Source: Apostichopus japonicus (lineage: Eukaryota > Echinodermata > Holothuroidea > Aspidochirotida > Stichopodidae). Taken from it: 64,000 bases of DNA. Location: NCBI RefSeq assembly GCF_037975245.1, contig NC_092578.1, positions 14,554,321 to 14,618,320 on the forward strand, given 5' to 3'. The notes beneath the pieces are model-generated. The model was not told the DNA's origin, searched no databases, and saw nothing but the letters and a program-made list of their open reading frames with translations. Positions 4,428 through 62,200 of the stretch are shown in pieces; the first letter of the stretch is position 1; the number at the start of each line of letters is the position of its first letter. The position numbers were made by a program, and so were the translations under genes.

Positions 4428-5005
4428 CAGTGAATGAGGCAACATGGGTCATGTTATTTATGTGACTGCCACTATGCCAAGGGAATAACATGCCACATTC
4501 CATTTGTCCAGAAGCTTTGTGAGCAGTGAGGACAATTCTTATTCCCCTAACTTCAAGATGAATATCATGATATGTTCTCTTATTCCTCTGGCATCTTGAG
4601 CAAATATGTGTGATCACGTCTCTTTGTCAATTCAAGATTTGTAACTAAGGCTTTCGTTTTGTTTATTGCAATGATTGTATTTCCCCGGTAACATTGCAAT
4701 TTTTTTTACTGGATTTGCATGATGTCACAATGTAAATATTTGCTTTGTAATGTTTTCATTGTCACTTGGTCCAATATGGTGTAGAAATTAGGTTGGACTC
4801 GGAGGCAATACTGAACACTTTGCTTACACATACAATGTGTCACACAAAGGTCTATCAAAATTCAAATGGATATTGACAGTTTTCAAGCTAAACAAAAAAT
4901 ATTTTGATTTAAGTGATCTTTGCACATGCAATTGAGAAGTAGGGAATATAACCTATAATAATAATAAAGGCAGAAATTATTCATCTATTTTATTAATTCC
5001 TACAG

Positions 5006-10682: not shown

Positions 10683-13600
10683 TCATTTTTCCATTAGAAA
10701 CATCTTATAAAGTTTTTCTTCTTTGGAGTTATTAAAGGAAGGAATGAAGTTCACTCGAATCACTTCATTGAAGCCTTCTTGCAGCTTTGGTTCAATGAAT
10801 TTATTTTTGTAGGAATGGAAGACCATATCGGAGATAGATGCATGGTTCTTGCCTGCGGGTGTCAAGGATCGGAACTAGAAGAGAAAGGCACAGAGACTTA
10901 GACTTGAATGCAGAAAAATACACATTTAGTGAAGATGATGTGGAGAGATCCTCTGGGGACAATAGTATGATATAACAGTTCAACAAGTAATGTAATACCA
11001 GGACTATGCTCAACAACACTCAACTATAATAATGCAACAAGTAATGTGATGCCAGGACTATACTCAACAGCATTCAACTATAATAATGCAACAAGTAACA
11101 GCTGTGCAACCATGTACACTTTGAGAGGGGGGCAGGCGGGGGGGAGAATGAACCGGGGTCGACACAATATTACAAAAAGCCCTTGTGTACAATACATAAA
11201 TATACAACATGTTTATGCGGTACAACCTGAACAGTCAACAATTCTTCAGCATGGTGTCAAAAGTTGCAAAATACAGCAAAAGTTTTGCATTTAAAGACCC
11301 CTACACTTTTTTTCCAAAATTTCTCAAATGAGATGGGACACCCCCCCCCCCCACAAAGGATGGTTAGATTGGGATCACCACAAGAAGAAAAATGGGAAAA
11401 AAAGGAGAAGATTTTGATTCCTTGCAAACAGACCTTTTCATTATGCCTGGCTTGATCTTGAGTAACATTGAAGACAAAACATCTACAAGCTACACCGGCA
11501 TTCTTGGCACAGTCAATGTACCTGAGGAGATGATAAAAGGACATGAATACAACATTGAAACTATGCAATTGGAATGAAATACGCTCTCTATATATCAAAT
11601 CAACCAAATATATGATATAGAAGCCACTGTGAGGCCTCAACCTACATGCATTAGTTGAAAAACCTATTTCAAGAAGACGAGAAAAAAATTAAAGTTTAAG
11701 AAAGAATCTTCTTTAACAGATTTTCCTATTTGCAATCTGTTATGTTAGAAAGTAATATTTGGTGGAGGGAGGGATGGTTTGGGGACAGATGAACTTACAC
11801 TCTCATATGAGAGGGTTTTTAGTTTACTTCCTCACATATTTTACTTATTTGCAGTTATATTGTCTTGTTCACCTTGTATTACTATGTGTTGAAACAAATA
11901 AATTATCAAATCACCAATATGAAAGGGACCATTTTGGAAGCAAGGAGGAACCAAGGAGAAACAGAGGACACACTGAAAACCCTTAAAAGTCGCTCTTTCA
12001 TAAATGAGTCTTTTTGATAACAGGTGCGTATCCAGGGGGGGCGTTGGAAAAAGAGAGAAAAAAAAGAGAAGAAAAAAGGAAAAAGAGGGGAAAAAAGAGG
12101 AGGAGGAGAGGAAGGAAGGGAAAAGAAAACGAAGAAAGAGAGAAAAGGAGGGAGTAAAAGAAAAACGCGAAGACACCGGGAAGAGAAAGAGAAACAGTGA
12201 CATCATTACAGCGCTGATCCCTATTATAAACACAGGGTAGCCAGTGACGGATCGAGGATTTCATAAAAGTGTGACTCACCCCACCCCTTACACCGACAAC
12301 TCCATTTTTTGTGTAAAAGTAAGTTGGCCTGACGTTTCGATCCTAGCAGGATCTTCTTCAGAGGCTAAATGACAAGTTACAGTAACAGAGGGGACAAAAA
12401 CACGCACAGAATACAGACAGGTTAATGAGCACGGTGAACACAATGAGATGGATGAAAGGGGATTATAAGTAGAAAGCAACAGGAGAAGAGGAGAGGAAGG
12501 AGATAAACTGTGGAGGGACAAAGAGAGGATTAAAGGCACAGGGTAAGGAATAAACTGGAGAGGGACAAAGACAGAAAGGTGTGAAGAAAAATGGAGGGGA
12601 AGAGAGCTGTGAGAAGAAGAGTGAAAGGGGGGGGAGGGAGAAAGGGGAGAAGGAGTAGGGAACAGAGGAAAGTTAGTCATGTCCTTCCTGAATGTTCAGC
12701 CCATGAGGTTGAATGGTACGAAGGCGTTGCATCCAGAGCCTCTCTCTGCTGATTCGTACTAGGTCAGGACGGCTACCTAAGGATTCAATCCCCTGTAGGG
12801 ACATGTCGTTAATGGTATGGTTGGGAAGGTTAAAATGTTCTCCAACTGGGGTCTCAGTCTTCATGGTGTTGACTGTGGATCTGTGACCATAGAATCGCTT
12901 CTTGAGGGTGGTTTTGGTTTCGCCAACATACTAGATGCCGCAAACTCTACAAGAGATCAGATAGATGACATTGGTGGTAGTGCAAGTGATGTGACCCTTA
13001 GTCTTGTGTGTGAGTTGCATGCTGTGGCTGGTGATGGAATTGGATTCAACAATGTGGTGGCTGCAGACGATGCATCTCGAAGTACGATCACATTTGAAGG
13101 TACCATGCTGAATGGGTGTGGGGTTAGAAGTTAGAGGTGGAACAGCAGCACGTACAAGAAGGTCTCGTAGGTTGCGTGGTCGTCTGTAGGCGATGATGGG
13201 TTTTTCAGGGACGGCTCGTTGGAGTCTATCTGAAGTGAGGAGAATGTTGTGGTTGTTAGAGGTGATTTTCTGAAGGGGAGGAAGATTTGGGTGGAAAGTA
13301 ACAACCAGGGGCAGCTTGTTGTCGCAATCTCGTCCCTTTTTGTCCTTCACTGCCAAAGTAGATGATCTGGAAAGGGAGCGGACTCTCTGAATGGCTTCAC
13401 GCACCCTTCTGGCACTATGGCCCCTGGCAATAAGGTGTTTTTCCAAAGCATCTGTATGGCGAATGAAAGAGGAATTGTTAGAGCAAATGCGACGAAGACG
13501 AAGTGCTTGACTGTAGGCCATTCCAGACTTGCAGTGACGGGGATGGCAGCTTGAAGAATGGAGATACTGGTGTGTGTCTGTGGGCTTGGTGTATAAGTCT

Positions 13601-27214: not shown

Positions 27215-27380
27215 CAGGGGCGTATCCAGGATTTTCTAACCCGGGGGGCGCGAATTACTATCTAAGCGGAGCGTCACTATCGGTTGGCGCGGAGCGTACA
27301 AGAAATTTCTGGTTTTGATACCCCCAGATCACCGGAAATGGCACTTCTTGGGCTTGAAAATGACCAACCAGATGTACACT
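27215..27380 (+). mobile_element. hAT-like MITE end, left part of an undelimited element
   Basis: Starts CAGGGGCGTATCCAGG after AAAAACAC and then carries CTATCTAAGCGGAGCG and GGTTGGCGCGGAGCGTACAAGAAA, the same internal block as the 1094-bp elements. The right end was not found; a candidate near 27990 lacks a matching duplication. Confidence 0.6.
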
Positions 27381-28827: not shown

Positions 28828-29269
28828 TTAAGGAAATGAATAGTTTAAAAATTATCTCCTTGGTAATTAAAATAAAGTTCTAAGCTAATTCGCCATTACT
28901 ACTGTAAAAGAGCGTTTTGACATAATTGGACCTGTATGCCTTTTCTCCATTTACATAAGACATTTCGTTGTTTTAACTTGTTTACAATAGCATCCGGCGG
29001 TATACTGCGCAACTTTCACGGACCGCACGGCACACGATGCCATGTGATGTAGTGACCGATGCTTGCTTATATGATATGTTGAAGCGCGCGAAAAATTTTG
29101 GTTATATTTTTCGGGTAAGTCGTTTAGCCCACAAATCCAATTTGGCTCCAACGCCTTTACTACACACATAGACAGTTTTGAGGCTGTTCATCCTGGAACA
29201 TGCAATTTCATGCTTACTGATATGATGTGATATCTGCTCTTTGCTTTACAAATTCGAACAGGCTTGTAA

Positions 29270-29420: not shown

Positions 29421-29661
29421 TTGCATCTAATCATTGTCTATTTTGAAATTACTAGCGATGCGATATCATAAAGGCGGTCGCCCCCTTCCCGAAATGCGTC
29501 ATGTTCCCCGACGACTCGGTCGAGTTCAAGACCAGCCACAGCTGGTTCCATAGCACAATTGTACAATTGTTTAAAGCGTCCATACACACACACGCGTTAT
29601 GATAGACCATATATAGTATATATATATAGATACATTAGTGAGAGAGGAAAAATGGAACGTC

Positions 29662-31083
29662 AAAAATGGAGTTGTCGGTGTAAGGGGTAGGGTGAGGCGA
29701 ACGTCCCCTCCGTAATCCTCGATCTGTCACTGGCTACCCTGTGTATATAAAAGTGATCAGCACTGTAATTATGTACGTTCCTCTTTCTCTTCCCGAGGTC
29801 TTCTACTCTCTCTTTTTCTCCTTTTTCTCTCTTTCTTCTTTTTCTTTTCCCTTCCTTCCTCTCCTCCTTTTCTTCCCCCCCCCCCCCTCTTTTTCCCTTT
29901 TTTCTTCTCTTTTTTTCTCTCCTCTTTTCCTTACCCGGGGGGCGCGCGCCCCCAACGCCCCTCAGGCGCGGCGGAACGGAAAAATTATTGGGGGGGCTAA
30001 TGTGTGGAGGCTATCTAAGCGGAGCGCCACCATCGGTTGGCGCGGAGCGTACAAGAAAATTTTGGGTTTTTTCAACCCCCCAGATGGCCGGAAACGGCAC
30101 TTTCCGAGTGTTTTATGCTGCGAATACCCAGCCCTAAAATATGGGTCTCAAGCCTGCAATTTCTCAGATTGCACGTAAAAGTCTGTAAAAACATTGTAAT
30201 TTGTATATTCGATGGTTTTTTAAGAGACTAGCTATTACTCGTAGCGTACTCGCAAAGATGTTTTTGAGTGTAGTAAGGGCAGTGGCGGAGCTAGAGTATT
30301 GGTCAGGGAGGGCAAGAATGGTCTGTAGGGGCGCTTTCGACACTATCTAAGCGGAGCGCCACCACAGGTTGGCGCGGAGCGTACAGAAAATTTTTGAGTA
30401 AAGATACTCCCTAGATTGCAGGAAATGACCCTTTCCGGGGCCTTGCTTATTTGCAGATAAACGGAGAATAAATAGGTGTCGTCGCCATTTTGTCGGAAAA
30501 TTAAACCAACAGAATATGACAAATGTCAATAGGTATATGAGAGCGCAATAAAATAGTCAAAAATCGCGAATAAGTAAAAAGTAGTGAAAAGCTGAAAAGG
30601 GCGCCAGCAGTCCATTTGAGTCTGTCAGGGGGGGGGGGGGGCATCCGCCCCCTGACTGTATATATGGACGCTCCGCCACTAAGTAAGGGGATGTTGGAGA
30701 ACTGGCTGAAATGAGGCAAGTCATTGGCCTAAGACGAAGTTGTGTTACGCTTACCGGTACTCACACTCACTGCTTCCACTTTTCACTGCTTCCCAACCGC
30801 GTGAAGACGCGGTTGGGGTGACAATGTGGTCTATAGCCAGGGGACGGGCCGAGGGTCCCCCAGCAATTACTAAAATTATTACACCTATAGCGTATACGTG
30901 TGCATCGGACAGATCGACAAGTATGCATTGAAAAATGGGCAGATGCACGTTTCAGAGCCTTGGTAAATATTGGGGGGGCTTATCATGCATTTGCCCCCTC
31001 AACTTTTTTATTGGGGGGCTGAGCCCCCCCAAGCCCCCCCGGTTCCGCCGCCACTGACGCCCCTCCCCCTGGATACGCGCCTG
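29662..31083 (+). mobile_element. Repeat family R1, copy 2, split by a nested insertion
   Basis: From 29662 (GGAGTTGTCGGTGTAAGGGG) through a CT-rich tract (29780-29935) to 29962, then resuming at 31057 and ending CTGGATACGCGCCTG at 31083. Inverted relative of 12004-12318. The interruption is the 1094-bp element at 29963-31056. The outer target duplication was not found. Confidence 0.75.
29963..31056 (+). mobile_element. hAT-like non-autonomous element, copy A (1094 bp)
   Basis: Exact 8-bp duplication ACGCCCCT at 29955-29962 and 31057-31064. Ends are imperfect inverted repeats: CAGGCGCGGCGGAACGG on the left; read inward from the right, CAGTGGCGGCGGAACCGG. An 8-bp duplication with CAG-type ends indicates hAT. 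The interior twice carries CTATCTAAGCGGAGCGCCAC with GGTTGGCGCGGAGCG. No transposase. Confidence 0.9.
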
Positions 31084-31915
31084 ATCACATTTGACACCTA
31101 TTCTGTGTGATGTAGAGTGCGTCATGTGGCCGGCTGGAGCTGCTTTGTTTTGATGACGTTTAGACCAGTCGCACGATTTTCGGACTGACTCGAGCGTCTC
31201 AAGTTGACCCGGTCGAACGCACCTACTGTAATCCATTCTCTGTCATGAAGATGTGTCATGAAAATGTTATCTCTAAATTAACCTTGAATCAAACACATGA
31301 TGTGGGTTAGGAACAAGCTGTATATCGAGACAAGGTTATCAAACAGGGATGGGTTTGGGAAATTGTGTCTTTCATACAAATTTTAACATTATTTGTCATC
31401 GAAAGCATCGTCCTCTTAGGCCCATGTTTTAACAAGGGAAATAATTAAAAATGTTTTTATTTCTCAAGAAAGTACAAGGAAAACTGTAAAGCCATTTATT
31501 TAGGTAATATGTCTGTATACAGATATCACGTAAGCCCAAATTTAAAATTGATTGAAAAAAATATGCCCCGTCTCCCCTCAATATGCAAATAATAATTTTG
31601 AAACAGAGATTAAGTATCAAATTTATTTTAAATAATCTTTTAGTCAAATTAATATCAATTAATAAGCAATTAAGATGATTTTAACCAATGATATTACTAT
31701 ATCGATCAATATCCATGACGCCATGGCTATTGTTGCCTACGTCATGGTCACGTCAGTGTTTCCAAGGCTACCGTCATGAAACCCCTAGCCTTCCACACGG
31801 TTCAGCGAGTCTAACGTAAAGGTGTCGCAACAATAATTTATTGCTACTTGGACTTACAAACTAAATTGGTTAATTCCTAAGTCTTCAACCGACATGTCCT
31901 ACCCGCCATATGATA
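31084..31915. other. Spacer without recognised features
   Basis: AT-rich sequence; I see no exon, RNA gene or repeat end. Confidence 0.5.
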
Positions 31916-31923
31916 GCCTGAAC

Positions 31924-32945
31924 CACTGGCGGATCCAAGGGGGGGGGGCCAAGGGGGGCCATGCCCCCCCCAAAGGTGGGCCAAAAAGTGTTTCCGAACA
32001 TCCGCTAAATCATATGATTGGAAATTAAAAAAATCGAGAGGAATAGCAGTGGTAGACTAGTCTAAACCTTTTCGTTTTCTGGTTTAAAATTAAATGCAGA
32101 GCTCCCAACTGACCCGCAATTCGCGGGAATTAGACCCGCATTCTAACACCCAAACCCGCTGACCCGCACAAGCGTCCGAAAAAACCGCATTGTAATTGTC
32201 AAGTATACATAAAAAAATTTGCATCAAATTTTGACTTAGCAACCATCATTTCTTTAGCATTTAGCATAATAGAGTATAAAACCTCCTTTACAGCATCATT
32301 TGAACCTCAAATTAGCCTATATTTCTTTTCATTGGGCCGAGCAGCGAACATTTTCATGCCACGGGAAAGAATGAATTATCACCTACTATTCAATTTATTG
32401 ATGTTACACACACAAAAATGCATATTTCTCAGAAAATTTTGGGTGACAAAAGCCTTTCTAAGTGCCACCATTTTACATGTAGGCATCACCAGGATTCCAA
32501 AAAAATTCAAAAGGGGAGGGGGACACCCCCTCCCCTTATACCCCTCCCCCAGGACGGCGATTCGTGGCATGGACCAGCATTTGCCTTCTCAAGAGTTGGG
32601 AGCTATGTAAATGTATGAGCATGAGGATTTACAGTTTAACACCATTTTGCAGTTACAGGCTGGTTGTAAGAAATTTATAACCTATGGGAAATAAAATTTC
32701 TTGAGAAAGATGATCCCAACTTTGTTTTATAAATATTTTAGAAAATTACACCTGGGAAACATTTTTTTTAGAAGTAAATTAACATCACCATTGAACACTT
32801 TTGTCGCACCAAATTGCATCTGAGGGCATTCAGCAATAGAAAATTTTCCAAAGGGGAGGGGGAACCCCTCCCCTTAGACCCCTCCCCCATATCACTCTAA
32901 TGCCACTTTGGCCCCTCCCAAACAAAGGCCCTGGATCCGCCAGTG
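31924..32945 (+). mobile_element. hAT-like non-autonomous element (1022 bp)
   Basis: Exact 8-bp duplication GCCTGAAC at 31916-31923 and 32946-32953. Ends CACTGGCGGATCCAAGGG and, read inward from the right, CACTGGCGGATCCAGGG. The interior is non-coding, with two similar G-run/C-run hairpins (near 32508-32560 and 32850-32890), each built around GGGGAGGGGG and CCCCTCCCC. Confidence 0.92.
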
Positions 32946-32953
32946 GCCTGAAC

Positions 32954-34145
32954 CATCACAGCTGACATTAAATTTTTGCCATCATTACCCTTAAGATTTT
33001 GAACGAGAAGAGGTCGAAATTTAGCTTAGTACTTCCAAACCTATCTGCCTGCTTTCGCTATGGGATCTTTCCGTTTCACCCAAAATTTCTCAAACGCATT
33101 AAATCACCTTTAATTATGCCAATTTTGAGACCATTAGTATGACCAACAATATATTTCATCCTTTTCAACATCCAAGCATCATTAACGTCGATTAACATTT
33201 CAGACGGACGTACACTATATTCTAATTGCGGTATGGTTTTTCCTTTAACGTAAATTGCTCCAATGACTAACGCACTATTAACTCTCCAAGTTCGCTAGAG
33301 CATATAGATAGAGGTTGTCTATCAGCATATATGTCCAATCCAACATATATGATAGCTGATATTAGGGGATATTATAATCCAGTTTAAATCATCCGGGTAT
33401 ATATTCTCTATGCATCAGAGTAGAAAACCGTACCGGTGTGAAAGTGTAGAACCCCCCTCCCCCCACCCCCACCCCCCTGACCATTTTAATTCCGGTGCAT
33501 GTAAATTTAATCCCGTTAAGAAAAATTGAAAGAAAAGTTTAGAATAGATGTGATTGACTAAAGAGATTTCCAATGATATTATCCATATTGTATTATGTTT
33601 TGTGGTGTGATATTATCCATAAGTATACTTCACTTACACAATATTTTTTACTGCTGGCATTGCATTCATAGATTTGAGCTATAGAAGAAAAGCAATCCTT
33701 AAAGAAAGACTTCACCTTGAATCCCGTTACAAGCGCATCTCAGAGCAGGGAGTGTATAATGCTAACAAATATCAAATGCATTCACTCCCCCCCCCCCCAA
33801 CCGCCCACCCCCAATGATCATTGATTTGATAAACCCCCTTTAACACATAAAAAGATTAAAAACGATGATGATGTCTGAAATTAATCACTAATTTAGATCA
33901 TTTGAGACGATGTTTTGTGCTACAGGATATGTACATTATTCTAATATGGATATCTTTCTAAACTGGTATATAAATGGTTTCTCATGTTATCATACCTTTG
34001 CCATTTTTTTTACAAATTTTATAATAAAAGATGATCATTTATGCTGTAAAACTTCATCACTTAACTAATCATTGTTAATTCAACAAAGGCACTCTGGTTA
34101 AATATATTCTGTTAGTATACGACTTTTCCAAATATGATATATCAT
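32954..34145. other. Integrin 3' flank
   Basis: Presumably contains the integrin 3' UTR on the minus strand. I found no canonical AATAAA close to the stop; CATAAA on the minus strand near 34040 is a weak candidate. Poly-C runs at 33450-33475 and 33787-33798. Confidence 0.4.
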
Positions 34146-36301
34146 TTAAATCGGTTCTTCCTTCTCTATATTCTCATCATCAGCCTCATCTGTTGGTGCT
34201 GTTGCAGGAATTCCATCCTTGTCGAACTTCTTGCGTTTGAAGAATCCAAGCTACATAAGAATAAATAAAATGATTAGTTTATATAATAACAAGAAAGAAA
34301 CGTGTTTTTTTTGGGTCAAAGGTCTAACATTCCAGCGAGGTATGGTATAACGAACTTAGTTATGACATTCACTGTTAGGTGACAGGGCTGTACGTATGTT
34401 GGTTAGGAGGGGGGGGGGGGGGTGGGTGCAAGTGCTACATACTAAACTTGTAATATATTAGTGTTACAAATTCTCCTTCTTTTGTTTTAGTCTTAAAGTA
34501 AAGGAATTGGAACGAGGTCTAAAGATATACAGAACTTCATATAAAAGATGAACGGTGTAGCTGCTTCATGTTGGAATTCCCAATTCTACAGTTACCTTAT
34601 ATTTTATTGATTAAATTAACGACACAAATTACGACGACGCACAGGTAACGTACACTTTGTGCCCACAAAATCCATGATTCACAATATACAAAACTCCCAG
34701 TATTATATCTTTGAAGATAATTCTTGGTTCGGGAGATAGTGAAGGTGAAGGGGGCGGAGGCGGTCAAGGGGTTTGGTAAGGGGGCGTGATAAGGGGAGAG
34801 CAATTGGCTGCTCTATCTTTTTCATATATACTTACCTTCCATAGTATAATGATGATCAAAATGAGTATCAATAGACCAACAAATATCGAAACCAGAATCG
34901 CCCAAATCGGAGCATGAAGCGTCTCTTTAAGGGTGTTGGGAGTCGCCCTTAAAGAGATCTATGGAAAACAGATGAGAAGGCAAAAATAATGAGAACTATA
35001 CATGGAGATAGGATTTACAACACTTTTATATTTTATTTTGGTATATTTGTATGTTCTAGATTGCAAACATCACTTAAATTATTCAAGGAATTATTTTGAA
35101 AACTTTCCATCTGCTTCTATATGTGATGGAAATTTATGGCTAGAACGGGATTCGAAACAGTGACCTCTGATTTACAATTTTTCATTTACATATTTAATTG
35201 TATGGTTTTAAATACACACAACAAAATACTAAACCTGTAAAACTTTAGAATGGTGCACCCTCTTTCCCTTCCTGTTCGCCTTCCCTTACCAACGCCCACC
35301 GCCCTCCCCCACCCCCACCTCCCATCCTTGTAGCATCAGGTTCTTCTCGTCCAAAATATTTTAATTAAAATGTGTGTATATAATTCACATAGCCTATAGC
35401 GTCAGTGTAGAAATATATGTTACCATTGCAGTTTCGTGGAGTCCTAAGTCAGGCTGAGCAACGTACGGCAAATTATGAATATCCAATGAAGCAGAAGACA
35501 CGATTTGCCAAGAAAATATGTTTTCCTGTCAAAGTGAAACGATACAAATCATTTTAGTTAAACGATGTAAAATAACACTGCTTGTTTTGTTTTGTTATGT
35601 AACGTAACCCATGCAAAATGCATGTTTCCTTTTAAAGAACGAGAAGCCACACAAGATTCATATTTGGTGAAACATTTCGCGTTCCATAGAGTTCAACCAA
35701 TACAACGGTTTAAACGTTTATTTACGCATATAGTTAAGTTAAATTTTTGTAGAGCCCTAGTATTCAAAGTGGACATTGCTACTCATTGTAGGACCGCCAA
35801 ATTTTGGAGGGGCACCAAAAAACAAAACAAAAAGGAAAAAAGGAAGAAGAAATTGCCTGATACTTGTGGGAAAATTATGTAATAAAACACTAATTACTTG
35901 AAAAGTTGAACAATACGACACCATTTTGCAACTAAATATACCGCGGTTAGTCAAATAAGAATTTCTCAAAAGTGAGGGGGATTCCTCCTCCCTGCCGACC
36001 CATTCCTCATTCATTGCGCAACTTTCCTCATTGTGATGAAGGTGAAAATTGGGGTAAAACAAATATGAATACCAGCCTGAGGGTTGAATATAGAAGTCTT
36101 TTAAAATATTAGGGTTGTATAAACTATTGAAATGTTTGCAAATTCGATCATATTTACTACTTGTTTTGGTCTTTTTTGTAAACTAATCATGTGTATTGTT
36201 TATATACGTGTTTGGAAGGTAATCGACAATAATGGATACACACTCAACTATATATCATCCTAGGTTTGCTTTACGATAAAGACATCTTCATGAACGACTC
36301 C
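34146..36301 (-). CDS. ITGA: Integrin alpha exons 27-30: membrane segment and tail
   Basis: A 27-bp exon (36301-36275, GVVHEDVFI) and the exon at 35525-35424 complete calf-2. Exon 34958-34836 ends in a hydrophobic membrane helix (WAILVSIFVGLLILILIII). The last exon encodes the tail starting LGFFKRKKFDKD, the GFFKR motif that clasps the beta chain, and ends with an acidic stretch and TAA at 34148-34146. Confidence 0.95.
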
Positions 36302-39300
36302 CTTAGAAAACTAAAAACAGAATCTTATTGCGAATGGGAGATATTCTTGCTTAACTTTAGTGTCTATAGGCTGTCCTTTTGTAAATCTGTGATATCATAT
36401 TGGCGTGTTCCTCTATAGGATCTGAAACGTTTTATTTTCCATTTTATTTTTTGCTGTTCATGTTTCCAGTGTATAGGCTATTATTTTAGCAATGCCATTA
36501 TTAAACAATAATCAGTAATAGTTTCAATATTTTGAGATAAACAATTTTCACACCCATCACACTTACAGAAAATAAAGAGTGTAAGATATAAAACAAAAAC
36601 GAACGAAATTGAATACCATGCGGCCCAATGATGTCATTGTTAGACTTGTTCAAGTCTTTAACATGGTGGGTGAAAGAACACTAAAACCTGTGATAGTTCC
36701 TAAATGAATCTTTTCTTAGTTCATGTTCTTGACAGTTATCTCTATCACTATAGACCAACGACGAATGGTACGTTTTAAGAAAAGTCACCACAGATAATGC
36801 CAGGTCACGAACACCAAACAACTTGATCCACTCTCAACCCCAGCCCCACCCCCTCCCCCTTACATGGAGACATGTAACCCGTGTGAAATAATAACGATGT
36901 TATATCAAGTGTGTATAGTATCACGAGTGCCTTGGATAATATTATGATCAGATTAAAGGTTAGTTCGTGATCTATCGTCTACTGTTTACCGAAGAGCCCA
37001 AGGCTGAAAAGCGACGGTTGTTTGTGAGCTCTTTGAAACATTGAACATTATGTGACCATTCTCGTCGTTCTAAGCAAATTTCTAAGCGATGCAGTTGACT
37101 TAAGAAAGCATGAATTTCTCACGAAGAAGCATTGAAGAGAAACATACAAACCTTCGATAGAGTTTTAGACCAAGTTCTGGAGCGTATTGTCAAAATGACA
37201 GTTTCTTCTTTCAAAACGTTTTCTAGACTGCATTCTATCAGGACACACCCATCGTATTCACGTGAACAGTTAGCCACGTAAGTTTCTGAAAGATCTGTTC
37301 GGGTCATTGCCACAGGTAACTCCTCCTCCTCATGATAATTTGACCAGTTACCTTCCACGTTCCTCCGTTGCCTGTTCCTCCCTCCTTCAGTCTCATTTCT
37401 AAATTCCTGGTTTTCCTCTGGAAATGTGTGCGTTGTTAGCTGAAGAAAAGAACATTCTTGTAACTATTGATAAGCGAAAATTTAGGGCGTCCTGCAACGA
37501 CATAAGGAAAAGCTTCAATTCTTAGGTCACACAACATGTTATCTGTCAACATGTAGAAAATAAATTTACCTTTAACCTACTTTTTCTTAAACTAAATTGC
37601 ACGATCCTATCTCTTCGTCCTATAAAATTGTGTAAAACAAATACATTCGAGAAAAAAAAATCGCGTCATCGGTAACATATATCCTAAACGAACTTAGGTA
37701 ATAATTTATAATTTGTCCAAAGTAAATTTATAATTTGTCCAAAGAAAAGAGCAAACTTTGTAAATATGAGTACCGCTTCCTCAACGCTACAACTAAAGGA
37801 ATGTCACAGGTATGTGGTGATATGTGGTATTTTGGGGAATATAATTAGAATTTTAACACATTACGGGCACTTTTGCATTGGCCTTGCGAACTTACACTAT
37901 TTGGTATGAAAAAGTTCTATGGTGATATATTTTATAAGTATTAAGATATATCTTATAAGTATTACATCTCTGCAATGCTAAAAACTAACATTTAACCTCT
38001 CCGGATTAATGGAACTTTTGATGACGTCACACATGCCTCCGTTGCTAAGCGATACATGAGTGAGGTAAAGAAGGTACTCCTCATCTTGGATAAACATTGG
38101 CCATCTAACCCTCAGGGTGGCGTTTCCGATCGTTCCTGGTCCATTGTTATTTACCTTTTCGTGAAACGCAAATGTAAAAATGTTTATACGAAAATAAGAA
38201 AATTATTAGCAGGCAAGGAATAAAATTTATTAATGTCATTGATAATTGTAAAAAAAAAAGAGTGAGTGTGTGTTGCAGGATATGAACGAGGGAGAGGATA
38301 CGGTATAAGAGGCGCCGTATATACGCCACAAACGCAGCTGAAAGACGTGCAGTTACATCGCCTAAGATAAATATTTTGAGAAATGGTGAAACCTGGTGTC
38401 TCAGAAAGGAGAACATTTTGCAATAAAAAGTTCACAATTGAGAGATGAAACTCCTAAGATGCAAAAAAGAAACGTCAAAAGTTTGGGATAAATATTCTAA
38501 AATTGTGTGAAAAATCGTGGGGATATTGATATGAAAAGTCACAATTTTCAGATAAAGAGTATAGACTCGAGATGAAACGGAGAAATTACGAAATAAAAAC
38601 GTCACAACTTTGAGCTGAAACGTGAATATATTTTGGGATGATATGTTGCAATGTCAAACCTCAAACTGAATTGTCAAAATTCTAAAACACAGAACTTTTG
38701 ACCACAATATTATGAATCTACCCGACAGCCTGGATGAATATTTACATGTTTTCCGACAACTATTTCCCTGTGAAAATGTTACCTAGATGGATATGTTTTT
38801 ATCTACTATGTCCCCACGCCCACTCATATAATGACGCCCCCTGTCAATAGTCAGTGCAGTATGTATTTCTTAAGTATTTAGCGCATTTTACCATGGATAA
38901 TGTCAAAATACACTCCATTTATCTCTTCATGGTGTCTAATTACTGAAGATATGAGTTAAGATGACTGTATGATAACGATCCACCTGATCATGCAGCAGGA
39001 AAGGTTCAATTGGGAAGGGGAAGTAGGGGGGGAAACAAACTTTGGGGGATCATTGGAACACGTGAATTTGATCTGAGAGGGTAAATCACAATGTTAATTT
39101 AATTACCGATAAAATAGATCCTCTACAGGATTCCCTACCACAATTCCAACAATTTTAAATATTTTCAAACGTATAATGACACTTTTTGATTAAATTTTCT
39201 TCTTAAGCAAACTTTTTAATTACAAAAAAAGGAAGATAACAAATGCAATTTTCACTGTATGAAAAGGCAGAAAAGATGTTGAATGTGGGCAAACTTCGGG

Positions 39301-42300
39301 GTCGTGGGAACATGTTACTTTGATCTGGAAGGGTAAACCAAAAATTACACGAGAAAATACATCCCCTGAGCATTCCGTACCACAATTACAAGCTTTTAAA
39401 TAATTATCAACGAAATGCACTTTTTAGTTAACTTTTCTTCTAAAATTTCAGCAATACTTCATTCAATTACCTTGTTTTGTCAGCAAAAGTTCACTTTTTA
39501 ATTTAAAAAAAAGAAGAAAAAAAAACCCAACGAATGTTTAGTTAATGAAACCAGGAGAGATCACCAGCACCTGTGACCCAGGTTCCTGTCCCCGTAAATG
39601 ACTCACCAAGTATTTATGAATAATTTCGTCCCCAAGGAGCTCATCGGTGTCGTTGTAAATCAACTGATCAATGTTTGCAAGTCTAAAAGGAAAATAACGC
39701 AAAAAATCAACGAATTGTGTTATTCTCTACCTGTCTGCACGACACTTATTAACACCCACCAAGACCAGCTTAATTACCACCACTCCCCACCCTTTCCCTA
39801 TCATCTTGTATTTCTATTGTTTAGTATATGTCTCGTGTACTGGACACATCTATTCACTGCGTGTGACCTTTTGTTTGAATCATGTGACTTGACCGGAAAA
39901 GAGACATCCGCAGCTGCGCAGATGGAAGCGCACATATTTATTGAAGATCGTTAGTCCAATTATCTCTCTGAGTATTTGCGATACTAAAACATGTTAATGA
40001 TGTCAAACAATTCCTCACCCACTCAGTGTAACATCTATTTTCGGCTCCAGAGAAATTTCGAGGGTTTTATTGTTGTTCTCCAATGGATCACTATTTGCAC
40101 TGCGAACAGAATCAAATAAAAGATACATAAAAGTACAGATTACTTTACTTCAAATTTTGTATTCCCACCGAAGTAAGTAAGTGTTGAGGTTTTATTTCAT
40201 CTTCTGGCCAGATTTCTCACTTTGTAGTTTTTACAACGGACGATCTTTAAACGTCAGATATTAAAGTTTTATATAGGCTATTCATTGGTCAAATACCAGG
40301 ATATGGCCACAGATTATACTTTAGTTAGGCACTTACTTCTAATTTAGCAAAGTTACGTAAATAATTTGGCGAATTACGATTACGGTTAGTATATTGTAGG
40401 CGGTGTTCAAACAAGAGACCGACAGAAACCATGGAGGAGTACTATATCTATTTATAAAATCTATTTCGAACTATTCAATTCAATATTTTCCTTTAAGATT
40501 TAATGACACACACACACAACAGACTAACCTCCCCACGTGGAAACTCGTCAGTAGAGAACGACTATCGCCAGGAACGGATTGAATATCAAACGTCATAACA
40601 AACTTAATTGTCTGAAAGAATAATGATCATAATACTTATTTATATAGAACATTATACACCGGCGGTCTCAATGCACTTTACAACAAACAAAAATGTCGGT
40701 ACAAATATACATCAAATAAGAACAAAGCTTAAAGATACAGAAAGAATCGGTACACGTACAAGGTCCAATGAGGGTAGCTCGTGAATAAGTGAGTTTTTAA
40801 AGACGCTTTTAAAATTATCTATGGTAGGGGCATTCCTAATGTGGGTGGGGAGAGTGTTCCAGAGTTTAGGGGCCGCAAATTGAAAAGAACGCTCACCGTA
40901 CGTCTATAGTTTTCATTTTTGGTGGCATTAGCAGAATAGCACTGTTAGATCTGAGTGAGCGAGTTGGAATTTGTAAGGTTAGTTGGATATATAGTTTGGG
41001 GCAAAACCATGGATTGCTTTGTAAGTGAGGATGAGAATTTTGTATTTAATTCTTTCAGAAACAGGAAACCAGTGAATGAGTAGGTGGAGAATGGTATGTT
41101 TAATGTGAGATCTGTTATCTGTGAGTAACTAATATGGAAGCGGTGTTTGAATGCGCTGAAGCTTAGAGATTTGGTTTAAGCAGGAAGACCAAATAAAAGG
41201 CTGTTACAACAGTCAAGTCTGGATTTTACCAAAGCATGGATAAGTGTCTCAGTCGACTTTTCATCAAGATATTTGCGAATTTGTCTAATTTTTCTGATAG
41301 CGTTTGAAGCAGAGCGGTAGATATTATTTACATGAGGCACCAATGTGAGTTTATCATCAAAATAACACTCATATCTTTAACAGAGGGAACAGGGAGATAA
41401 ACTAGAATCACTAATCTTAACGGAAGTTACAGGGGTGACATTACAGAACCCTGACGAAACATGCATCAGTTCGGTTTTGTTGTCGTTGTGAATTAGTCTG
41501 TTGTTTACTCACCAGGTTTTTATTTCGTTTATGCATGATTCAAGTTGTTCAATAGTCTGATCCTTTTGATCAATACTCATGGACACATAAACTTGTGTAT
41601 CGTCTGCAAAAATCATCCCTTGCAGACTGTGAAATGTGAGAATGTTTTCAATGGGGAGGTGTAATATGTGAAAACAGGTAGTCCTAGCACTGATCCAGTG
41701 GAACTCCATATTTAAGATAGCGGGGTCAAGAATGTGTATCGTTAATGGTAACAGTCTGCGAGCGGTTTGTGAAATAAGTATCAAATCATATAAATAACAA
41801 AATATTGTATCCAGTTAAGAATGCAAGAAACCCATTTATAATCTCGCTTGTGCTTCTTCAAACATCGTCATGGTTACGTCACATCAATATGCAATTACAT
41901 TTTGCAAATACATATTTACCTTATTCACGCCACTCTCCAACAACAATTTGCATTCATCACCCAAACAGGCAACTTGTGGATAATTCATGCATGGTTTCAA
42001 TAGTTTACCAGAGTTCTTTCTATTATAATGCTTTCACAATAGTTTCACATCAGTGTACGAAAGTTTAAAACTACAATATTATTACCGACTCAGGCTGTAC
42101 TTACGGTACGACCTCGTAGGGGATTTCCCAAATCACAGACCACTCTGGATAATGACCTCTGTTCTTTGCAAATTATTGCCAAATCCTGTTAGAAAAAAAT
42201 ATATATATGAATGCAGTGTATACGTGAATGTTCTCTCAGTATTGCATGTGCAGCTTTAGCCAATCTTATAGCAGCAATTTTTTTTATATACTGCTGTATA

Positions 42301-45300
42301 TTTATACACAAGACATATTTTGGAAGTGAATTTCAATTATGCAAAGGCTACTGTCTGAGGCAATTGGTGGATTGTATGCAAGTGCCAAGAGTACATGTAC
42401 AAGTGCAAAGTGCCAAGTGTACAAGTGTACATGTGTTTCGCATTCTTTACTCTCTTTGATTTGCTTCGTAGAAAGGAGGATGCCAATCATAATATGTTAT
42501 CCACGTGCAAAATACTATTTCTTTGGCCAGTTGCCATGTTATTGGTTTATTTGGGTATCTGATACAGTTGGGTTGCATAGCCGATTGCAACCATCTCAGG
42601 AAAACAAGTTAGTAAGTGCTAATTGTTGTGGTATTTAATTAATCAACTATTTGTTTGTGATTCTTCAGCTGGCTAAGCCTATCTTTAGTACCTGATGTCA
42701 TGGGTAATAATATTGCTACAGTTAACTCATCTACTGAGGACGATTAGTGAAATAAACTGAATTGAGCTGTATTTATGCACATGTTTGTTTCAATATACAT
42801 GATACTGTAAAGGCCTATTAATAGGCGCTATAACATATCCGATGCGTCAGTGGCGGCGGAACCGGGGGGGCTTGGGGGGGCTCAGCCCCCCCAATGAAAA
42901 AGTTGAGGGGGCAAATGCATGATAAGCCCCCCCAATATTTACCAAGGCTCCGAAACGTGCATCTGCCCATTTTTCAATGCATACTTGTCGATCTGTCCGA
43001 TGCACACGTATGCTATATAGGTGTAATAATTTTAGTAATTGCTGGGGGACCCTGGTCCCTCGGCCCGTCCCCTGGCTATAGACCACATTGTCACCCCAAC
43101 CGCGTCTTCACGCCCCGTGAAAAGTGGAAGCAGTTAGTGTGAGTACCGGTAAGCGTAACACAACTTCGTCTTAGGCCAATGACTTGCCTCATTTCAGCCA
43201 GTTCTCCAACATCCCCTTACTTAGTGGCGGAGCGTCCATATATACAGTCAGGGGCGGATCCCCCCCCCCCTCCTGACGGACTCAAATGGACTGCTGGCGC
43301 CCTTTTCAGCTTTTCACTACTTTTAACTTATTCGCGATTATTGACTATTTTATTGCGCTCTCATATACCTATTGACATTTGTCATATTCTGTTGGTGTAA
43401 TTTTCCGACAAAATGGCGACGACACCTATTTGTTCTCCGTTTATCTGCAAATTAGCAAGGCCCGGAAAGGGTCATTTCCTGCAATCTAGGGAGTAACTTT
43501 ACTCAAAAATTTTCTGTACGCTCCGCGCCAACCTGTGGTGGCGCTCCGCTTAGATAGTGTCGAAAGCGCCCCTACAGACCATTCTTGCCCCCCCCCCTGA
43601 CCAATACCCCTAGCTCCGCCACTGCCCTTACTACACTCAAAAACGTCTTTGCGAGTACACTACGAGTAATAGCTACTCTCTTAAAACACCATCGAATATA
43701 CAAATTACAATGTTTTTACAGACTTTTACGTGCAATCTGAGAAATTGCAGGCTTGAGACCCATATTTTAGGGCTAGGTATTCGCAGCATAAAACACTCGG
43801 GAAGTGCCGTTTCCGGCCATCTGGGGGTTTGAAAAAACCCAAAATTTTCTTGTACGCTCCGCGCCAACCGATGGTGGCGCTCCGCTTAGATAGTCTCCAC
43901 ACATTAGCCCCCCCAATAATTTTTCCGTTCCGCCGCGCCTGCGATGCGTCCTACAGTAGCGTGAATGGTACAGATAGGAAGGAGAGCAAGAGAATATCGT
44001 TTTCATTGTTTTGTATATAAATATATTGTATATAAATATATTCAGTTCTTCATTGAAATGCATGCATTATCAATTAAATGATTGTAACTTTTGGCTTGAC
44101 AAATATAGTAATTTATTCCACTTTTTATAGTTCAGTTCTTATTTTTTCAATAAGTGAATAGATATATTCATACTTATTTTGAAGGATGGGGATTTTCCAG
44201 CACTACAGCATATCAACATCTTTATACCGAAAATGTATCAGTACATGCTACAAAGTCATGTCATGTGCATAGTTTAGTGATCGTTACGAATATCGGTAAA
44301 TTAAACCTGCAGGATTGGCAACATACCAATCTCTCTTACTTTCCATTGGCTGCCTCCACCTGCAATTAGCATTCTTTTCACAGACTTGTTATTTCCGGCA
44401 AGTTGCATGCGCGCGGTGGTAAGAACAAAAGAACCCCCAGCCTCCCAGGGAGAAAGTAATTCACATAACTAAATGCAATGTTGTTTTCTTTACAGTGTAA
44501 AGTTGAGTTCGTAACACTTTCCATTTTATACTGTCGATGTCTGAATGACGTGCGAAAAGTGTGTGGAATCTGATCGAACTGGGTGGAGCCCAGCTCCTGC
44601 AGAACTTGTGAATCTATATAATAATAAGGAATGCTAAGCAGAAAGGAAAGAATTTGTGTATAAGACGAGCCGTGTTTTTTTCTTGTGTTTTTTTTTTTGG
44701 AAAAAGTAATAAAAAGATAAACTAGTCGATGCCTCAGCCGATACATGAATATTTAATACGTTTGTGTACAACGAAACTGGAAAGATGGAGAATTACATTC
44801 TAAAAATGATAACAATGGCAGGAGTCCCGAAACTGTGCTTCTAAAGTTCTATGCTAAACGAATTATTTCAATGGGAGGGGAACGACGCTATTACTATGGA
44901 GTTGACGTTTTGCCATGGAGACAGGTAGGATTATCAACGAAATCATTATTAACCAATTCCATCAAGCTAGCTAACAGCATAATTATCTTACTTAGTCTTA
45001 GTATTAATTATTATGAGTGAAAACACCAGTTGCTTGCGTGCTTGCTCACAGATGTACCCTATGATTTCATTCACAATAGTATCAAAGTAACTGAAGCTAA
45101 TTATTTAACCCCATCACAATATATATGTGAATATAAAACAGCCGGATAGGATGTGACGTCCTACGCAGTGATATTGGTAATGGTATTACAGGACATAGGA
45201 ATGTGTGAGTGACTGCATTTTTAAAAACAAACTTAAAGTGTTTAAAACTATAGTTTACTAAGTACCTGGTTTTGGTTTAAGCATTGCCCCAATTATCTTT

Positions 45301-48300
45301 GTTAACAACGTTTATTTAACATATTATTTTTTTGAATATTTGTGTTGTATGATAATGATCCATAACAACGGCCCTCTCTGTAGACTGTAGTATTGGAAAT
45401 ATTTCATACCTTTTATTAAAAAATATTTCTTCTTCGTTTTAACCTTCAGTATACCAATGAAGTAAAAAAAAAGTAAAAGAAGTTCCTCTTATTGCTTTGA
45501 CATAAAAAGTAAACGTCTATGTGAGGTGAGCTATTGTACATGTGCTAGTGTTATTGGTCGAAAATTATGATCCTGCATATAGCAAGCACAACAAAATAAA
45601 TGCCAAATTTCGCAATTAAAGATACAGTGCATCTTTTTGAAGTAAATGGGTGAGATATATGTACTATAAGACGCAGAATATTGTACATCTTTGTGGACAA
45701 ATGTCCTTTAGTGAACGGTCCTCTCTAAGATTCAAACCATCATTGTTATTGTTCTTGCCCCCCTGTATAGCATAGTAAATTAGATGAAGGTAAAATATGT
45801 AGGTGTGTAATTGTTTGTGTAATCAATGTTGAGTTGAAATAAAACAAATGCACCTCTGGTTCGCTGTGCTGAAGTATGGAAAGAGGAGAAAACGAAAAGT
45901 TGAACAAGTAATCGCAATTCTAGAATAACAGCCTCTCACCCAAGGAAATCACATTGATTTCTCTACTCCCTGAAGGGATGGAATTTGTTTTAATTTCCGC
46001 ATTGGTGTGGCAAACTTACCGATTTTATGACAGTTTGTGCCGATAGCATCAGTGCTTGATGTGTTTCTACGTGTAATTTGGACTCGTATGCTTCATCGCC
46101 GGAATTCTCCACAGTCACTGTTAACTTAGGCTGTGATGTATCTCCCATGTGAAGCACAGACTTATCACTTCAGTCGTTTATATGAAGTATAAAAAAGAAG
46201 AAAGTTAGCTTTTCGTCCGGGAGTTGAAATCGCTTCCATGTTGACGAGAAAGAGTCTGTGCATAGGCAAAAAATTGTCATAAATACTCCCTACCCCCCCC
46301 CCCCCCACCACGCACCTCCCTTTCTTCTTTCTTCTTTCTAATTGTTCAGGTGGACCATTAGAAAGCTCTTTTACATACATGCTCTTGTTGTGTATGTAGT
46401 CCCATTCATATTATGCTGCAGAAAATCACGAGGTTATAGGAAGGAGAAGGGGTAGTCAAGTAATCTAATTATTCTTACAAATTCATCATTTACAGTTGAG
46501 TAATATATACTGTAGGCCTATTGCTGTGTAAACATTTAACACCCATTAACCTTTAAGACAGCTGAGGAATTTACATCATTGCATGGAAAATGTCAAACAT
46601 ATCTTGGCAACAATTTAACCCTTCCCTGACTCAATTCTCTATACATACCTTTCAACTGTCAGGCTTATGTTTGGAAAACATGTCTTTTCCAAGGAACAGG
46701 CAATCCGAATCTTGAAGAATATAAAGTAAGAAAAGAAACTATAAATCAACAATCAAGAAAAACAAACAAAACTGAAGGAAAATTAACCGGTGTTATAGAG
46801 TTCAAGGATGGCTGCGGGCTAAGGATTAATTTTGATTTGATGTAAAACCCCTTAAAAAAATCCATGTTGCTATCGTCCAGATTACAGCTTTGTACTATAT
46901 TTGTTTCTTGCGAAACGATCCTTTTGCACATACAAAAAAAAAACAAATATAAGCGACTGGACTACTGAGTTAACACAAAGACCATTCGTCCAACACGTCA
47001 AAAACAGAACAACACAAAACTCAAATGAGAAAAACAAGACTGTCACATTTGCCTATTTGTTCCTCGCAAAAGCGGTTTTACGATCGAGAATTAGATGGAT
47101 GCTGTATTCATGTTAACACGTCTGTTCAAAAGCCCGGGTGATGAATCACCCTCCCCATCCGCACTAGCCGGCAGAATTTTACAAAATAATTATAGGGTCA
47201 TTACATAAAAAATAAACATATATGGGCAGTACAACCCAAACAGTCGAAAATTTGTCAACAAATATAACACAAATTTGAATCTAGGCACCCTCTATTTACC
47301 AAATTTTCTCAAAAGAAAGAGGCCCCATCTCCTTCGACCCCATACCTGGACGACACAACATCTCCCCCCCCCCCCCACCTTTCGCCCTTGCTGCTCAAAC
47401 TTAAAGGCTGTTGACGAAACCAGAGGGAATTGGAGGAAAAAACAGGCAAGAAACAGCATCAAGTATTCAGCTCATAGTGGGAAGGAAAATGGCATTGTGG
47501 ATACTCAGAGCACTTCACTCTACATAGTCTATATTACTGATATATACCTGTTTTTTTAATGTTCGAGTCTCTCCATCCACCACAGGAGCTATTTCACCCG
47601 GAGGAAGGTCGATCTCTGTATTAGGAATAGCCACGACCTGAACCACAATAGGATCTACTTTATCGATTATTTGATCCTTAAAAGAGAAGAAAATCGTCGA
47701 AAAGTAAAGAATATAAAGGGGTCACAGGACGACACATATTGCTCCAGCCAAATTCTCGAATGCGGTCCCCATGGTTGGGTTTACCTGGCTAATCGAGCTC
47801 TGGGTTGCATCATGCTTGGTGGGTTCCTCGTGGTTCTAACATCTGTATACCCATCCCCAGTTTCGAAATAACCGTACACAATTCTTATCTGAAGTAAATT
47901 ACTTTTGACGTCACCGTCTACTACACAACCCGAGTGCCGAGGGAATGTCTAGTTTTTCGAAACAACACGACATACATATTACAGGGAACTCAAACCTTAT
48001 AATACTTTCTACATTCTCTTTTTATTCAACCCTTCACCCTGAAACCAGTGCCATCATTAGCCCATGTTAATTAATTAAAATCTTCAATATTTTAGGTTCA
48101 GCATTTTAAATCCCCTCTCCATTACAAACTATAAAATTATTTGAAATAAATACAAAAGGAAGCACATGTGGCTGAATCATTTCATATTTAGATTTGACCA
48201 AGTCTTCGGTATTACGTGTGAACAAATATAAAATCTGTGATATATCCCAAATGAAGTTACATTTTTCTTACCTGTTTGTTGACTTTGTTCATAACAGTGA

Positions 48301-54300: not shown

Positions 54301-57300
54301 CATCGATTTTTGAGGGGTGCACGCATGGAGCCTAGGGGTTTTTCATAAAGGAAGCAGCTGAGTCGTGGGCTTAACACTTTGTGGACCGATGGTATTAAGG
54401 GTTTATTGGACTTAGCTGTGTTCGTCATCTCGAATGGGGTGTATTGGACTTGTTCCGTTTTGCTTTTTTCTTTTGATTCGCTACCGACTTGCCTGGACAG
54501 GAAGTAGGAGAGTGGAGGGGTTTTATTCCCACTCCACACCTCCCCTGGATGCAATAATTCCCTTTGCTTTGGTCGGGTATTAGCAAAGTACGTAGTCACG
54601 TGTATCCATTCATAGTATACGGACTAAAGATTATAGTCTGTTAAAATGTTATATACTTAATGCTTAATAATATGTAATGGTAAAAGAATAATGGTAAAAG
54701 AATAATACACAGAGACAGAAGCAGAATAACAAGACTTCTCCTCAAGCTACAATGATGAAGAAATTTACTCTGATCTGTTCAGTCCCAATACTGATACACT
54801 TATTCATTATAACCAGTGATTATATGTATTGTACTTGTGCATAATACACAATTTAAAGGTTAGAGGCTATGTTGGTTAGACCAACCGGTTAAACAATCCC
54901 TGCTATAACTGAACGCTGCTATAATATCCTAACGGATGGTAGTATATAACTTATTTATAATATTAGTTATATTACCATGCCGAAAAGAGAAGCAGCTCTC
55001 GGACTACCGGTGACGTAACTTAGGCCGCGACCCGTGAAACGACCATAACCCACTGCATATCCTACACGAAGAATAAAAGTAACATAATAATGAATTATTT
55101 TAAGGCAGTTATAGATATTGAAAAATACGAAAATCCAAACTGATTTGAATCAATTACTGATATTCTCTAAACCCAGCAGCCTTGCATGGGGACTTAAATC
55201 ACGTGACTATGACATTTAGTATCACGAATCTATTGACAAAACGTACACTTCACATGATCTTAAACGAAAGAAGAAAACGTAAAATATTGTTGGTTATAAA
55301 CGTGCAGGAACGGTATCACTATAATAACAGATTTATTTCTAATTACATCGACAATTTTCTCTTACTTTGACAGATTGTAAAGTTCCCCTATAACATTAAC
55401 TTTCAGTACTGTTATACCTCTTGTCAGTTTGGAAAGGAATTTCGATAGAAATTGGCTCATACATCCGGAAATCCCTTCCCAAGCTTCATCAATTTCCAAA
55501 AGGTTCGACTGATGGTTAACATCAATTCGTCCAATAATCAACACTAAAGACATGAACAAATGTAAATACATCACAGAAACCAGTTTCAAAAACCAGATAC
55601 ATATGTGAATAATGCGCCATAAACAGAAAAGTCTCGACATGACCAGGTAGTACTTGTCGTCTGATTATCAACCTATAGTACTTAGAAACAGCCATGAGCC
55701 ATGTCAATGTAATTTAAATAATTGAAGATGAAAAATCGTATAACCTTCATCTTACCTTGTAAACTGCCGTCAAAAGCCACCTCTCGTTCTGGTGCGTTTA
55801 TAGTTTTAGACTGGGTTTGAACAAAGATATTTCCTGTAAGAATGAAACACATTTTTGTTTCTCTTTCTGCCGCCACATTGTAGCCTGGGATAAGGGGGAG
55901 GGGTAGAATGAGAACCCATATGTTTAGTGCCTATACCCGTGGAGGCTTAGAAAGAATGAAGGGGTGGTGGGTGTTAGGGCGTTCATGTTATCAATTATCT
56001 CGTAAAATTTTGCATGTATGCTGTTGCATGACATTTTGCTTGCTTACCTTGATGTCCATATGACCCCGGTGTTCCGAGAATAAATTTACCCTCCTATATA
56101 GAAAAGGAAAATATGTTGAAATGCATTCGTTTAATTTGACAACGAGGTGTTATCGAAGTACATCGTGAGTGAATAAAACAGTCTTATATGTTTTTAATAT
56201 CTCATCAGGATTTGTTCCTTTTATACTGTTCATGGATCGATGTTTTTGAGATACCATGAATGCAATAATGCTTAACTGTTTAAAAAAAACCAGGAGCTTT
56301 AATTGGCTGTTAACTTAAACGAGAGCAAATAACTTGAAAAAGGCGGATGCATGGTTGGAGGGGGGGGGGGTAATACTGCTTTAGTGACTTAACATTCTAG
56401 TACTAATTCCTTCGCTAAATAATAAACAATATTCTAATAAAGAACTTATAAAGCTCATTTTCTTTACAATCTCACAAACACTTTATTTGCCCATGCGCAA
56501 AGCGGCTTTAGGACATGAACAATTTTGATTTCAAGGGAAGCTCCACTGTTTACACTTGGCAACTGAGAAAAAAGTAGATGAACTGAAAGTTTAAATACCG
56601 ATGTTAAATCGCCATCCATACCAGCTTGACAACCGCTTCCCACGATAAAAGGAGCACGCCCTGAAAATCAAAATTATGAAAGAAAAGTAGGCAGCATCCA
56701 TTATCTACGGAAGCGTAGAAGGGACATGCTGAAGAAAGAGTAACAAACTCGTCAAAATGACACAATTCAAAAAAATGACGTTTTGCCGAGTTTAACAACT
56801 GGTCAAAACGACAAAATCATTAAATTTGCCGAGATGCAACAAGTCGTCATCATGACAAAATTTCGAAAATTGACGTTTTGCCGAGATACAACAAGTCGTC
56901 AAAATGACAAAATTCTGAAAATTGACGTTTTGCCGAGATACAACAAGTCGTCAAAATGACAAATTCTGAAAATTGACGTTTTGCCGAGATACAACAAGTC
57001 GTCAAAATGACAAAAATCTGCAAATTGTCGTTTTTCCGAGATACAACAAGTCGTCAAACTGACAAAAAACTGAAAATTGACGTTTTTGCCGAGATACAAC
57101 AACTCGTAATTATGACAAAAATCAGATTGTTGTCGTTTTGACGATTTGTATCTCGGCAAAACGTCAATTTTCAAAATTTGGTCATTTTGACGAGTTGTCG
57201 TATCTCAACAAAACGTCAATTTTCAGAATTTTGTCATTTTGACGACTTGTTGTATCTCGGCAAAACGTTAAGATCCACCATGTCCCTTCTTCGCTTCCGT

Positions 57301-60354: not shown

Positions 60355-62200
<1,846 letters not shown>

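What the first reader, a model, noticed from the sequence alone, without database searches (positions are those of the whole stretch)
29955..43949. Two 1094-bp hAT-like elements, same length, inverted, 12 kb apart, each with its own 8-bp duplication
Copies at 29963-31056 (duplication ACGCCCCT) and 42848-43941 (duplication CGATGCGT) are the same length and nearly the same sequence. Each has its own exact target duplication, so they are independent recent insertions and not one segmental duplication. As an inverted pair straddling the 3' end of the integrin gene they could pair in a transcript or promote inversion.
Basis: seen in the sequence. Interest (0 to 1): 0.72.

Follow-up and report, generated by a model that had tools for sequence, protein, structure and literature searches.

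The report
Young nested hAT-like MITE family
Two near-identical stretches beside and inside an animal integrin gene are independent copies of a small jumping DNA that carries a second, related jumping DNA inside it and has spread recently as one unit; this is a well-dated but familiar kind of genome parasite.

Summary
A (29963-31056, +) and B (42848-43941, -) align at 97.2-97.6%, share no flank, and each has its own exact 8-bp duplication. They are composites: both hold the same 402/403-bp hAT-like element at the same internal site with the same duplication, AGTAAGGG, so nesting came before either insertion. A genome search listed 40 near-full-length copies, A included, a lower bound. Of 41 copies analysed (A, B and 39 others), 41 carry the nested unit and 40 have exact, mutually different 8-bp duplications; the sample is biased towards composites because the query was one. 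Divergence is low (mean 1.07% from the majority base); four copies on four contigs differ pairwise by 1-2 substitutions in about 1,092 bases. A and B fall in two subfamilies, so neither came from the other; the equal length is coincidence. No transposase was linked to A/B; a neighbouring element (31924-32945) shares a related end with a hAT of 804 aa. B lies in an integrin-alpha intron; A lies 3.1 kb past the stop codon. No evidence supports transcript pairing or inversion. It is a young, probably recently active, non-autonomous hAT-like family: a new member of a known kind.

The parts
29963..31056 (+). Copy A of the composite element (subfamily 1)
29955..29962 (.). Left 8-bp duplication of A, ACGCCCCT
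31057..31064 (.). Right 8-bp duplication of A, ACGCCCCT
30280..30681 (+). Nested 402-bp hAT-like element inside A (ends CAGTGGCGGAGC / TAGTGGCGGAGC)
30272..30279 (.). Left duplication of the nested element in A, AGTAAGGG
30682..30689 (.). Right duplication of the nested element in A, AGTAAGGG
30011..30104 (+). Left subterminal module (two GCGGAGC sites) of the outer element in A
30343..30436 (+). Same module at the left end of the nested element in A
42848..43941 (-). Copy B of the composite element (subfamily 2), in an integrin-alpha intron
42840..42847 (.). 8-bp duplication of B, CGATGCGT
43942..43949 (.). 8-bp duplication of B, CGATGCGT
43222..43624 (-). Nested 403-bp element inside B, same site and same duplication (CCCTTACT on the + strand)
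31924..32945 (.). Third hAT-like element C (1022 bp, ends CACTGGCGGATCC, duplication GCCTGAAC); its last 200 bp are 66-67% alike to the end of a hAT with an 804-aa frame elsewhere in the genome
29662..31083 (.). Older repeat H into which A inserted (limits approximate); it ends CAGGCGCGTATCCAGG on the - strand at 31083
12021..12309 (+). Paralogue of repeat H without A: shows the pre-insertion arrangement with a single ACGCC...
27215..27346 (+). Solo left end of a third related family: CAGGGGCGTATCCAGG followed by the same subterminal module
45993..46169 (-). Integrin-alpha Ig-like domain 2 exon (upstream of B in the gene)
   Evidence: E=2.2e-7
37981..38202 (-). Integrin-alpha Ig-like domain 3 exon (downstream of B in the gene)
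   Evidence: E=5.5e-13
34146..34250 (-). Integrin cytoplasmic-tail exon (LGFFKR...), stop codon at 34146-34148; motif recognised from memory

Best explanation
A and B are two copies of a young, non-autonomous, hAT-like cut-and-paste family (a MITE). An older element of about 684 bp first received a related 402-bp hAT-like element in its middle. The composite kept functional outer ends and was then moved as one unit, probably in trans by a hAT transposase encoded elsewhere, each time duplicating 8 bp of target. It split into at least two subfamilies; A and B are one of each. Shown: nesting with a shared internal duplication, many independent insertions, low divergence. Inferred: hAT transposase in trans, and that the left-end GCGGAGC module is its binding site. 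No function for the integrin gene is indicated.
For: Own exact duplications and no flank homology; same nested element with AGTAAGGG in both; equal divergence of nested and outer parts, 10/399 vs 16/683, Fisher p=0.84, and 1.04% vs 1.08% over 41 copies; 41 of 41 copies with the nested unit, 40 of 41 with exact duplications, 40 of 40 different; nested duplication exact on both sides in 34 of 41; four copies 1-2 substitutions apart in all 6 pairs, on contigs C3, C8, C17, C21; two subfamilies; pre-insertion paralogue for A; 150 hAT transposase matches listed in the genome.
Against: No transposase was linked to the outer ends: of 150 matches listed, 30 loci (1.5-kb flanks) were scanned and none shows the outer terminal pattern. 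One, L076, holds a 178-column, 80% match to the outer left region about 420 bp beyond its hAT match, but it looks like a separate diverged copy. The duplications do not follow the Ac/Hermes preference nTnnnnAn (2 of 40, 3.8 expected). The 39 extra copies are best matches to a query that contains the nested unit, so 41 of 41 is biased; the search for outer elements without the nested unit did not complete (21 tries).
Confidence: 0.87

Rival explanations
1. A and B arose from each other by a local duplication or local hop within this region, later separated and inverted.
For: Same length, 97% identity, 12 kb apart.
Against: Different exact duplications, no shared flanks; A and B lie in different subfamilies, with A-B divergence 2.96% against 1.37% from A to its nearest copy and 2.22% from B to its nearest.
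Confidence: 0.02
2. The inverted pair is functional: it pairs in the integrin transcript or drives recurrent inversion of the 3' part of the gene.
For: Inverted orientation at 97% identity around the last integrin exons.
Against: B is intronic; A is 3,090 bp past the stop with 5 AATAAA and 3 ATTAAA on the coding strand between. An inversion between A and B would have swapped their duplications; both are correctly matched. A and B are two of at least 41 dispersed copies. No RNA or population data were tested.
Confidence: 0.04
3. The unit is one complex element whose apparent inner ends are ordinary subterminal repeats, not a second transposon.
For: Outer and inner left ends are homologous (66.5% over 206 columns), and the inner unit is present in 41 of 41 copies, though that sample is biased.
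Against: The inner unit has inverted ends and an exact 8-bp duplication (AGTAAGGG) in both window copies, exact on both sides in 34 of 41 copies.
Confidence: 0.08

Closest known systems
hAT-derived MITEs such as Mar in Drosophila (PMC3517528, abstract and outline seen)
   Same: Short, non-coding, inverted ends, conserved duplications in recent copies; hAT superfamily.
   Different: Here the mobile unit is a composite with a second hAT-like element nested inside; its own transposase is not identified. Mar was placed in the Buster group by its transposase.
MER6, a mariner MITE carrying an inserted SINE (PMC6887750, abstract and passages seen)
   Same: A MITE that took up another mobile element and then spread as a composite.
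   Different: MER6 is Tc1/mariner with a SINE and diverges about 19-23% from consensus; here a hAT-like unit sits inside a related hAT-like unit, about 1% diverged.
Hermes (hAT), asymmetric ends read by BED domains (PMC10368747, passages seen)
   Same: 8-bp duplications; imperfect terminal repeats; short repeated subterminal motifs at the left end.
   Different: Motif here is GCGGAGC, not AAGT/AAGC; the nTnnnnAn target preference is not seen.
hAT proteins with CGG/GCGC-binding domains, mainly hAT-19 type (PMC8097297, abstract and passages seen)
   Same: Motifs of the four tested hAT proteins match subterminal regions of their own elements, most motifs in the study hold CGG; here CGG-containing GCGGAGC recurs at the ends.
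   Different: No such protein has been tied to this family.

Membership tests
hAT superfamily | 8-bp target duplications | tested here: met
   40 of 41 copies exact, one with a single mismatch
hAT superfamily | Short terminal inverted repeats of CAG... type | tested here: met
   CAGGCGCGGCGGAAC / CAGTGGCGGCGGAAC, 13 of 15 matched; that CAG... is typical of hAT is recalled
hAT superfamily | Moved by a hAT transposase | tested here: inconclusive
   150 Dimer_Tnp_hAT matches listed in the genome; 30 of the 150 loci scanned, none with the outer terminal pattern. Neighbour element C has an end 66-67% alike to that of an 804-aa hAT
Ac/Hermes group of hAT | Target preference nTnnnnAn | tested here: not met
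   2 of 40, 3.8 expected; not filed here
Buster group of hAT | Target preference nnnTAnnn (recalled) | tested here: inconclusive
   6 of 40, 3.8 expected
MITE (non-autonomous, multi-copy, short) | No transposase reading frame | tested here: met
   No stop-to-stop frame of 90 aa or more lies wholly inside A or B (list). Of three overlapping frames scanned against Pfam, two gave nothing and one (29660-30010, mostly flank) two weak matches below the curated cut-offs, neither a transposase
MITE (non-autonomous, multi-copy, short) | Many homogeneous copies | tested here: met
   40 near-full-length copies listed, a lower bound; mean 1.07% divergence over 41

The most novel reading that the evidence does not exclude
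The composite is still transposing in this species, and several hAT-like families with different terminal repeats share one left-end GCGGAGC module because a single CGG-reading hAT transposase (or a set of related ones) recognises it. Nesting one such element in another doubles the module in the left half and may have made the composite a better substrate. The target preference (almost no T at position 1, few A at position 8) would be that transposase's signature.
Probability: 0.2. Interest if true: 0.5.

Novelty: new member of a known kind. Interest (0 to 1): 0.33.

Why it matters
It gives a clean, dated case of two DNA transposons fusing by nesting and spreading as one unit, in an animal genome with copies young enough (1-2 substitutions apart) to suggest recent or present activity. 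If active, it is a natural marker for insertion polymorphism and a test bed for how asymmetric hAT ends work. For the integrin gene it is probably neutral.

Tried and rejected
Pairing or inversion role: rejected for lack of evidence (see rivals). Segmental duplication: rejected. The exact subterminal 20-mer in viral contigs: 0 matches. Structured RNA (Rfam, gathering cut-offs) and tRNA (bacterial settings): none in the window. A bacterial promoter/terminator scan was uninformative for an animal genome. The fold of the nested unit as DNA is stable (z -3.85), as expected for inverted ends; not used further. A possible diverged empty site of the outer element at 29148-29180 scores 18 against a maximum of 16 in 300 shuffles; too weak to use. 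The own duplications of repeat H and its paralogue were not found, so H is not filed. The left end and duplication of the 804-aa hAT element were not found in a 5.7-kb stretch. Four paper searches with all terms required gave 0 papers. Others gave lists seen as titles and abstract starts: 6 papers for the letters CAGTGGCGGA with 'transposon', none opened; 12 for hAT transposase and subterminal terms, three opened (opened); 8 listed of 31 for nested MITE terms, one opened. No claim is made that the family is unpublished.

Full report
What is there. They align over 1082 columns with 30 or 26 substitutions, depending on the aligner, and 24 gap columns. The equal length is therefore an accident of compensating indels. 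The 1-kb flanks share nothing beyond a 20-column match at 90%.

Inside A (30280-30681) and inside B (43222-43624) lies a 402/403-bp element with ends CAGTGGCGGAGC / TAGTGGCGGAGC and an exact duplication AGTAAGGG on both sides. In a scan for hAT-like ends 80-6000 bp apart, 25 left-type and 19 right-type candidates in the window gave three pairs with at most one mismatch in the 8 bp: the two nested elements and a third, C, at 31924-32945 with duplication GCCTGAAC (the end pattern used did not cover the outer ends of A and B). Because A and B share the nested unit at the same site with the same duplication, nesting came before both insertions. Nested and outer parts are equally diverged between A and B (10/399 and 16/683, Fisher p=0.84).

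A has a sequence like its own pre-insertion site in the window. A sits in an older repeat H, near 29662-31083; a paralogue at 12021-12309 has a single ACGCC... where A has two copies of ACGCCCCT around the element. The alignment there runs through a C tract and has gaps, so its exact columns are uncertain, but the number of copies is not. No such site was found for B in the window.

The genome. The window lies in an unnamed assembly of 671.6 Mb in 35 contigs. A search with A scored 40 candidates, of 4785 from the first look, and listed 40 near-full-length places, A included; B was not among them, so this is a lower bound. I fetched the 39 others. With A and B, 41 of 41 have both ends and at least 380 bases of the nested unit; 40 of 41 have exact 8-bp duplications, all 40 different, and the exception has one mismatch. 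The nested duplication is exact on both sides in 34 of 41. Because the query contained the nested unit, the 41 of 41 is biased towards composites. Mean divergence from the majority base is 1.07% (0.46-2.04%), mean pairwise divergence 1.98%. L009-L012, on four contigs, differ by 1 or 2 substitutions in all 6 pairs. Comparing 190 bp at each end of the 39 fetched loci, two pairs of loci share 52-55 bp at 92-95%, and two loci (L012, L038) have flanks that resemble each other within the locus; nothing else matched at E 1e-5. Linked diagnostic sites split the set into 14 copies with A and 25 with B, with 2 intermediate.

Target choice. In 40 exact duplications, T at position 1 occurs once (12.5 expected, p=9e-6) and A at position 8 three times (12.2 expected, p=8e-4), a symmetrical avoidance; G is enriched at positions 1 and 7 and T depleted at 6 at p below 0.01. 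The p values are uncorrected for 32 tests. nTnnnnAn occurs in 2 of 40 (3.8 expected), nnnTAnnn in 6 of 40 (3.8 expected). Hermes prefers nTnnnnAn (PMC10368747, passage), so this family is not Hermes-like in that respect.

Ends. Outer element, nested element, and a solo end at 27215 share a left subterminal module that begins 44-64 bp inside different terminal repeats; a fourth fragment at 29316 has it without a clear end. GCGGAGC occurs 15 times in the window (0.87 expected), 14 of them in these modules or the nested ends; several of these are copies of one another, so they are not independent. hAT proteins bind subterminal repeats, some with CGG or GCGC preference matching their own ends (PMC8097297, passages), and Hermes reads its left end asymmetrically through BED domains (PMC10368747, passages). 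That the module is a binding site is my inference.

Transposase. The search listed 150 Dimer_Tnp_hAT matches, a lower bound. I scanned 30 of these loci with 1.5-kb flanks; none shows the outer terminal pattern. L076 holds a 178-column, 80% match to the outer left region and a short match to the right end, about 420 bp beyond its hAT match; it looks like a separate diverged copy. L069 and L061 have shorter matches of 25-52 columns. Four loci with an 804-aa open frame share about 200 bp, terminal repeat included, with the end of element C at 66-67% identity; one was scanned and matches DUF4371 and Dimer_Tnp_hAT. So a relative of the neighbouring element is tied to a hAT protein, whereas the A/B family is filed as hAT-like on duplications and ends.

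Gene context. Integrin-alpha exons lie on the - strand: Ig-like 2 at 45993-46169, Ig-like 3 at 37981-38202 and 37119-37463, and the LGFFKR tail with stop at 34146-34148 (motif recognised from memory). B lies between the Ig-like 2 and 3 exons; whether another exon lies in between was not settled. A is 3,090 bp past the stop. The correctly matched duplications show that this haplotype carries no inversion with ends in A and B.

Verdict. The finding is real and its main inference (independent recent insertions) is right; the family is young and composite. The suggested effect on the integrin gene is unsupported. It is a new member of a known kind.

Noticed in passing
31924-32945: A third hAT-like element (1022 bp, duplication GCCTGAAC) 867 bp from A, with an internal 52-column repeat at 88%; its last 200 bp are 66-67% alike to the end of a hAT element with an 804-aa open frame in four genome loci.
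   Followed up: partly
L071-L074, L078: Three of the four loci with the 804-aa hAT frame are identical over 2,869 bp (all on contig C7) and the fourth is about 98.8% alike, suggesting very recent movement or local duplication of that element.
   Followed up: partly
L078:3-611: A 203-aa frame upstream of the hAT frame matches Pfam Herpes_teg_N (E=3e-9); whether it belongs to the same element is unknown.
   Followed up: no
L076:2012-2337: A diverged relative of the outer element (80% over 178 columns at the left region) close to a hAT transposase match.
   Followed up: partly
12931-13683 (-): 250-aa frame that reads like a retroelement protein (impression from memory); no Pfam match at E 0.1.
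   Followed up: no
56749-57268: 52-bp tandem repeat, about 6 copies, followed by an inverted-looking stretch of a similar unit.
   Followed up: no
61934-62134: A perfect (TA)100 microsatellite.
   Followed up: no
4997-7464 (+): Exons of a short-chain dehydrogenase gene: strong match in the first (E=3e-16), weak in the second (0.07).
   Followed up: no
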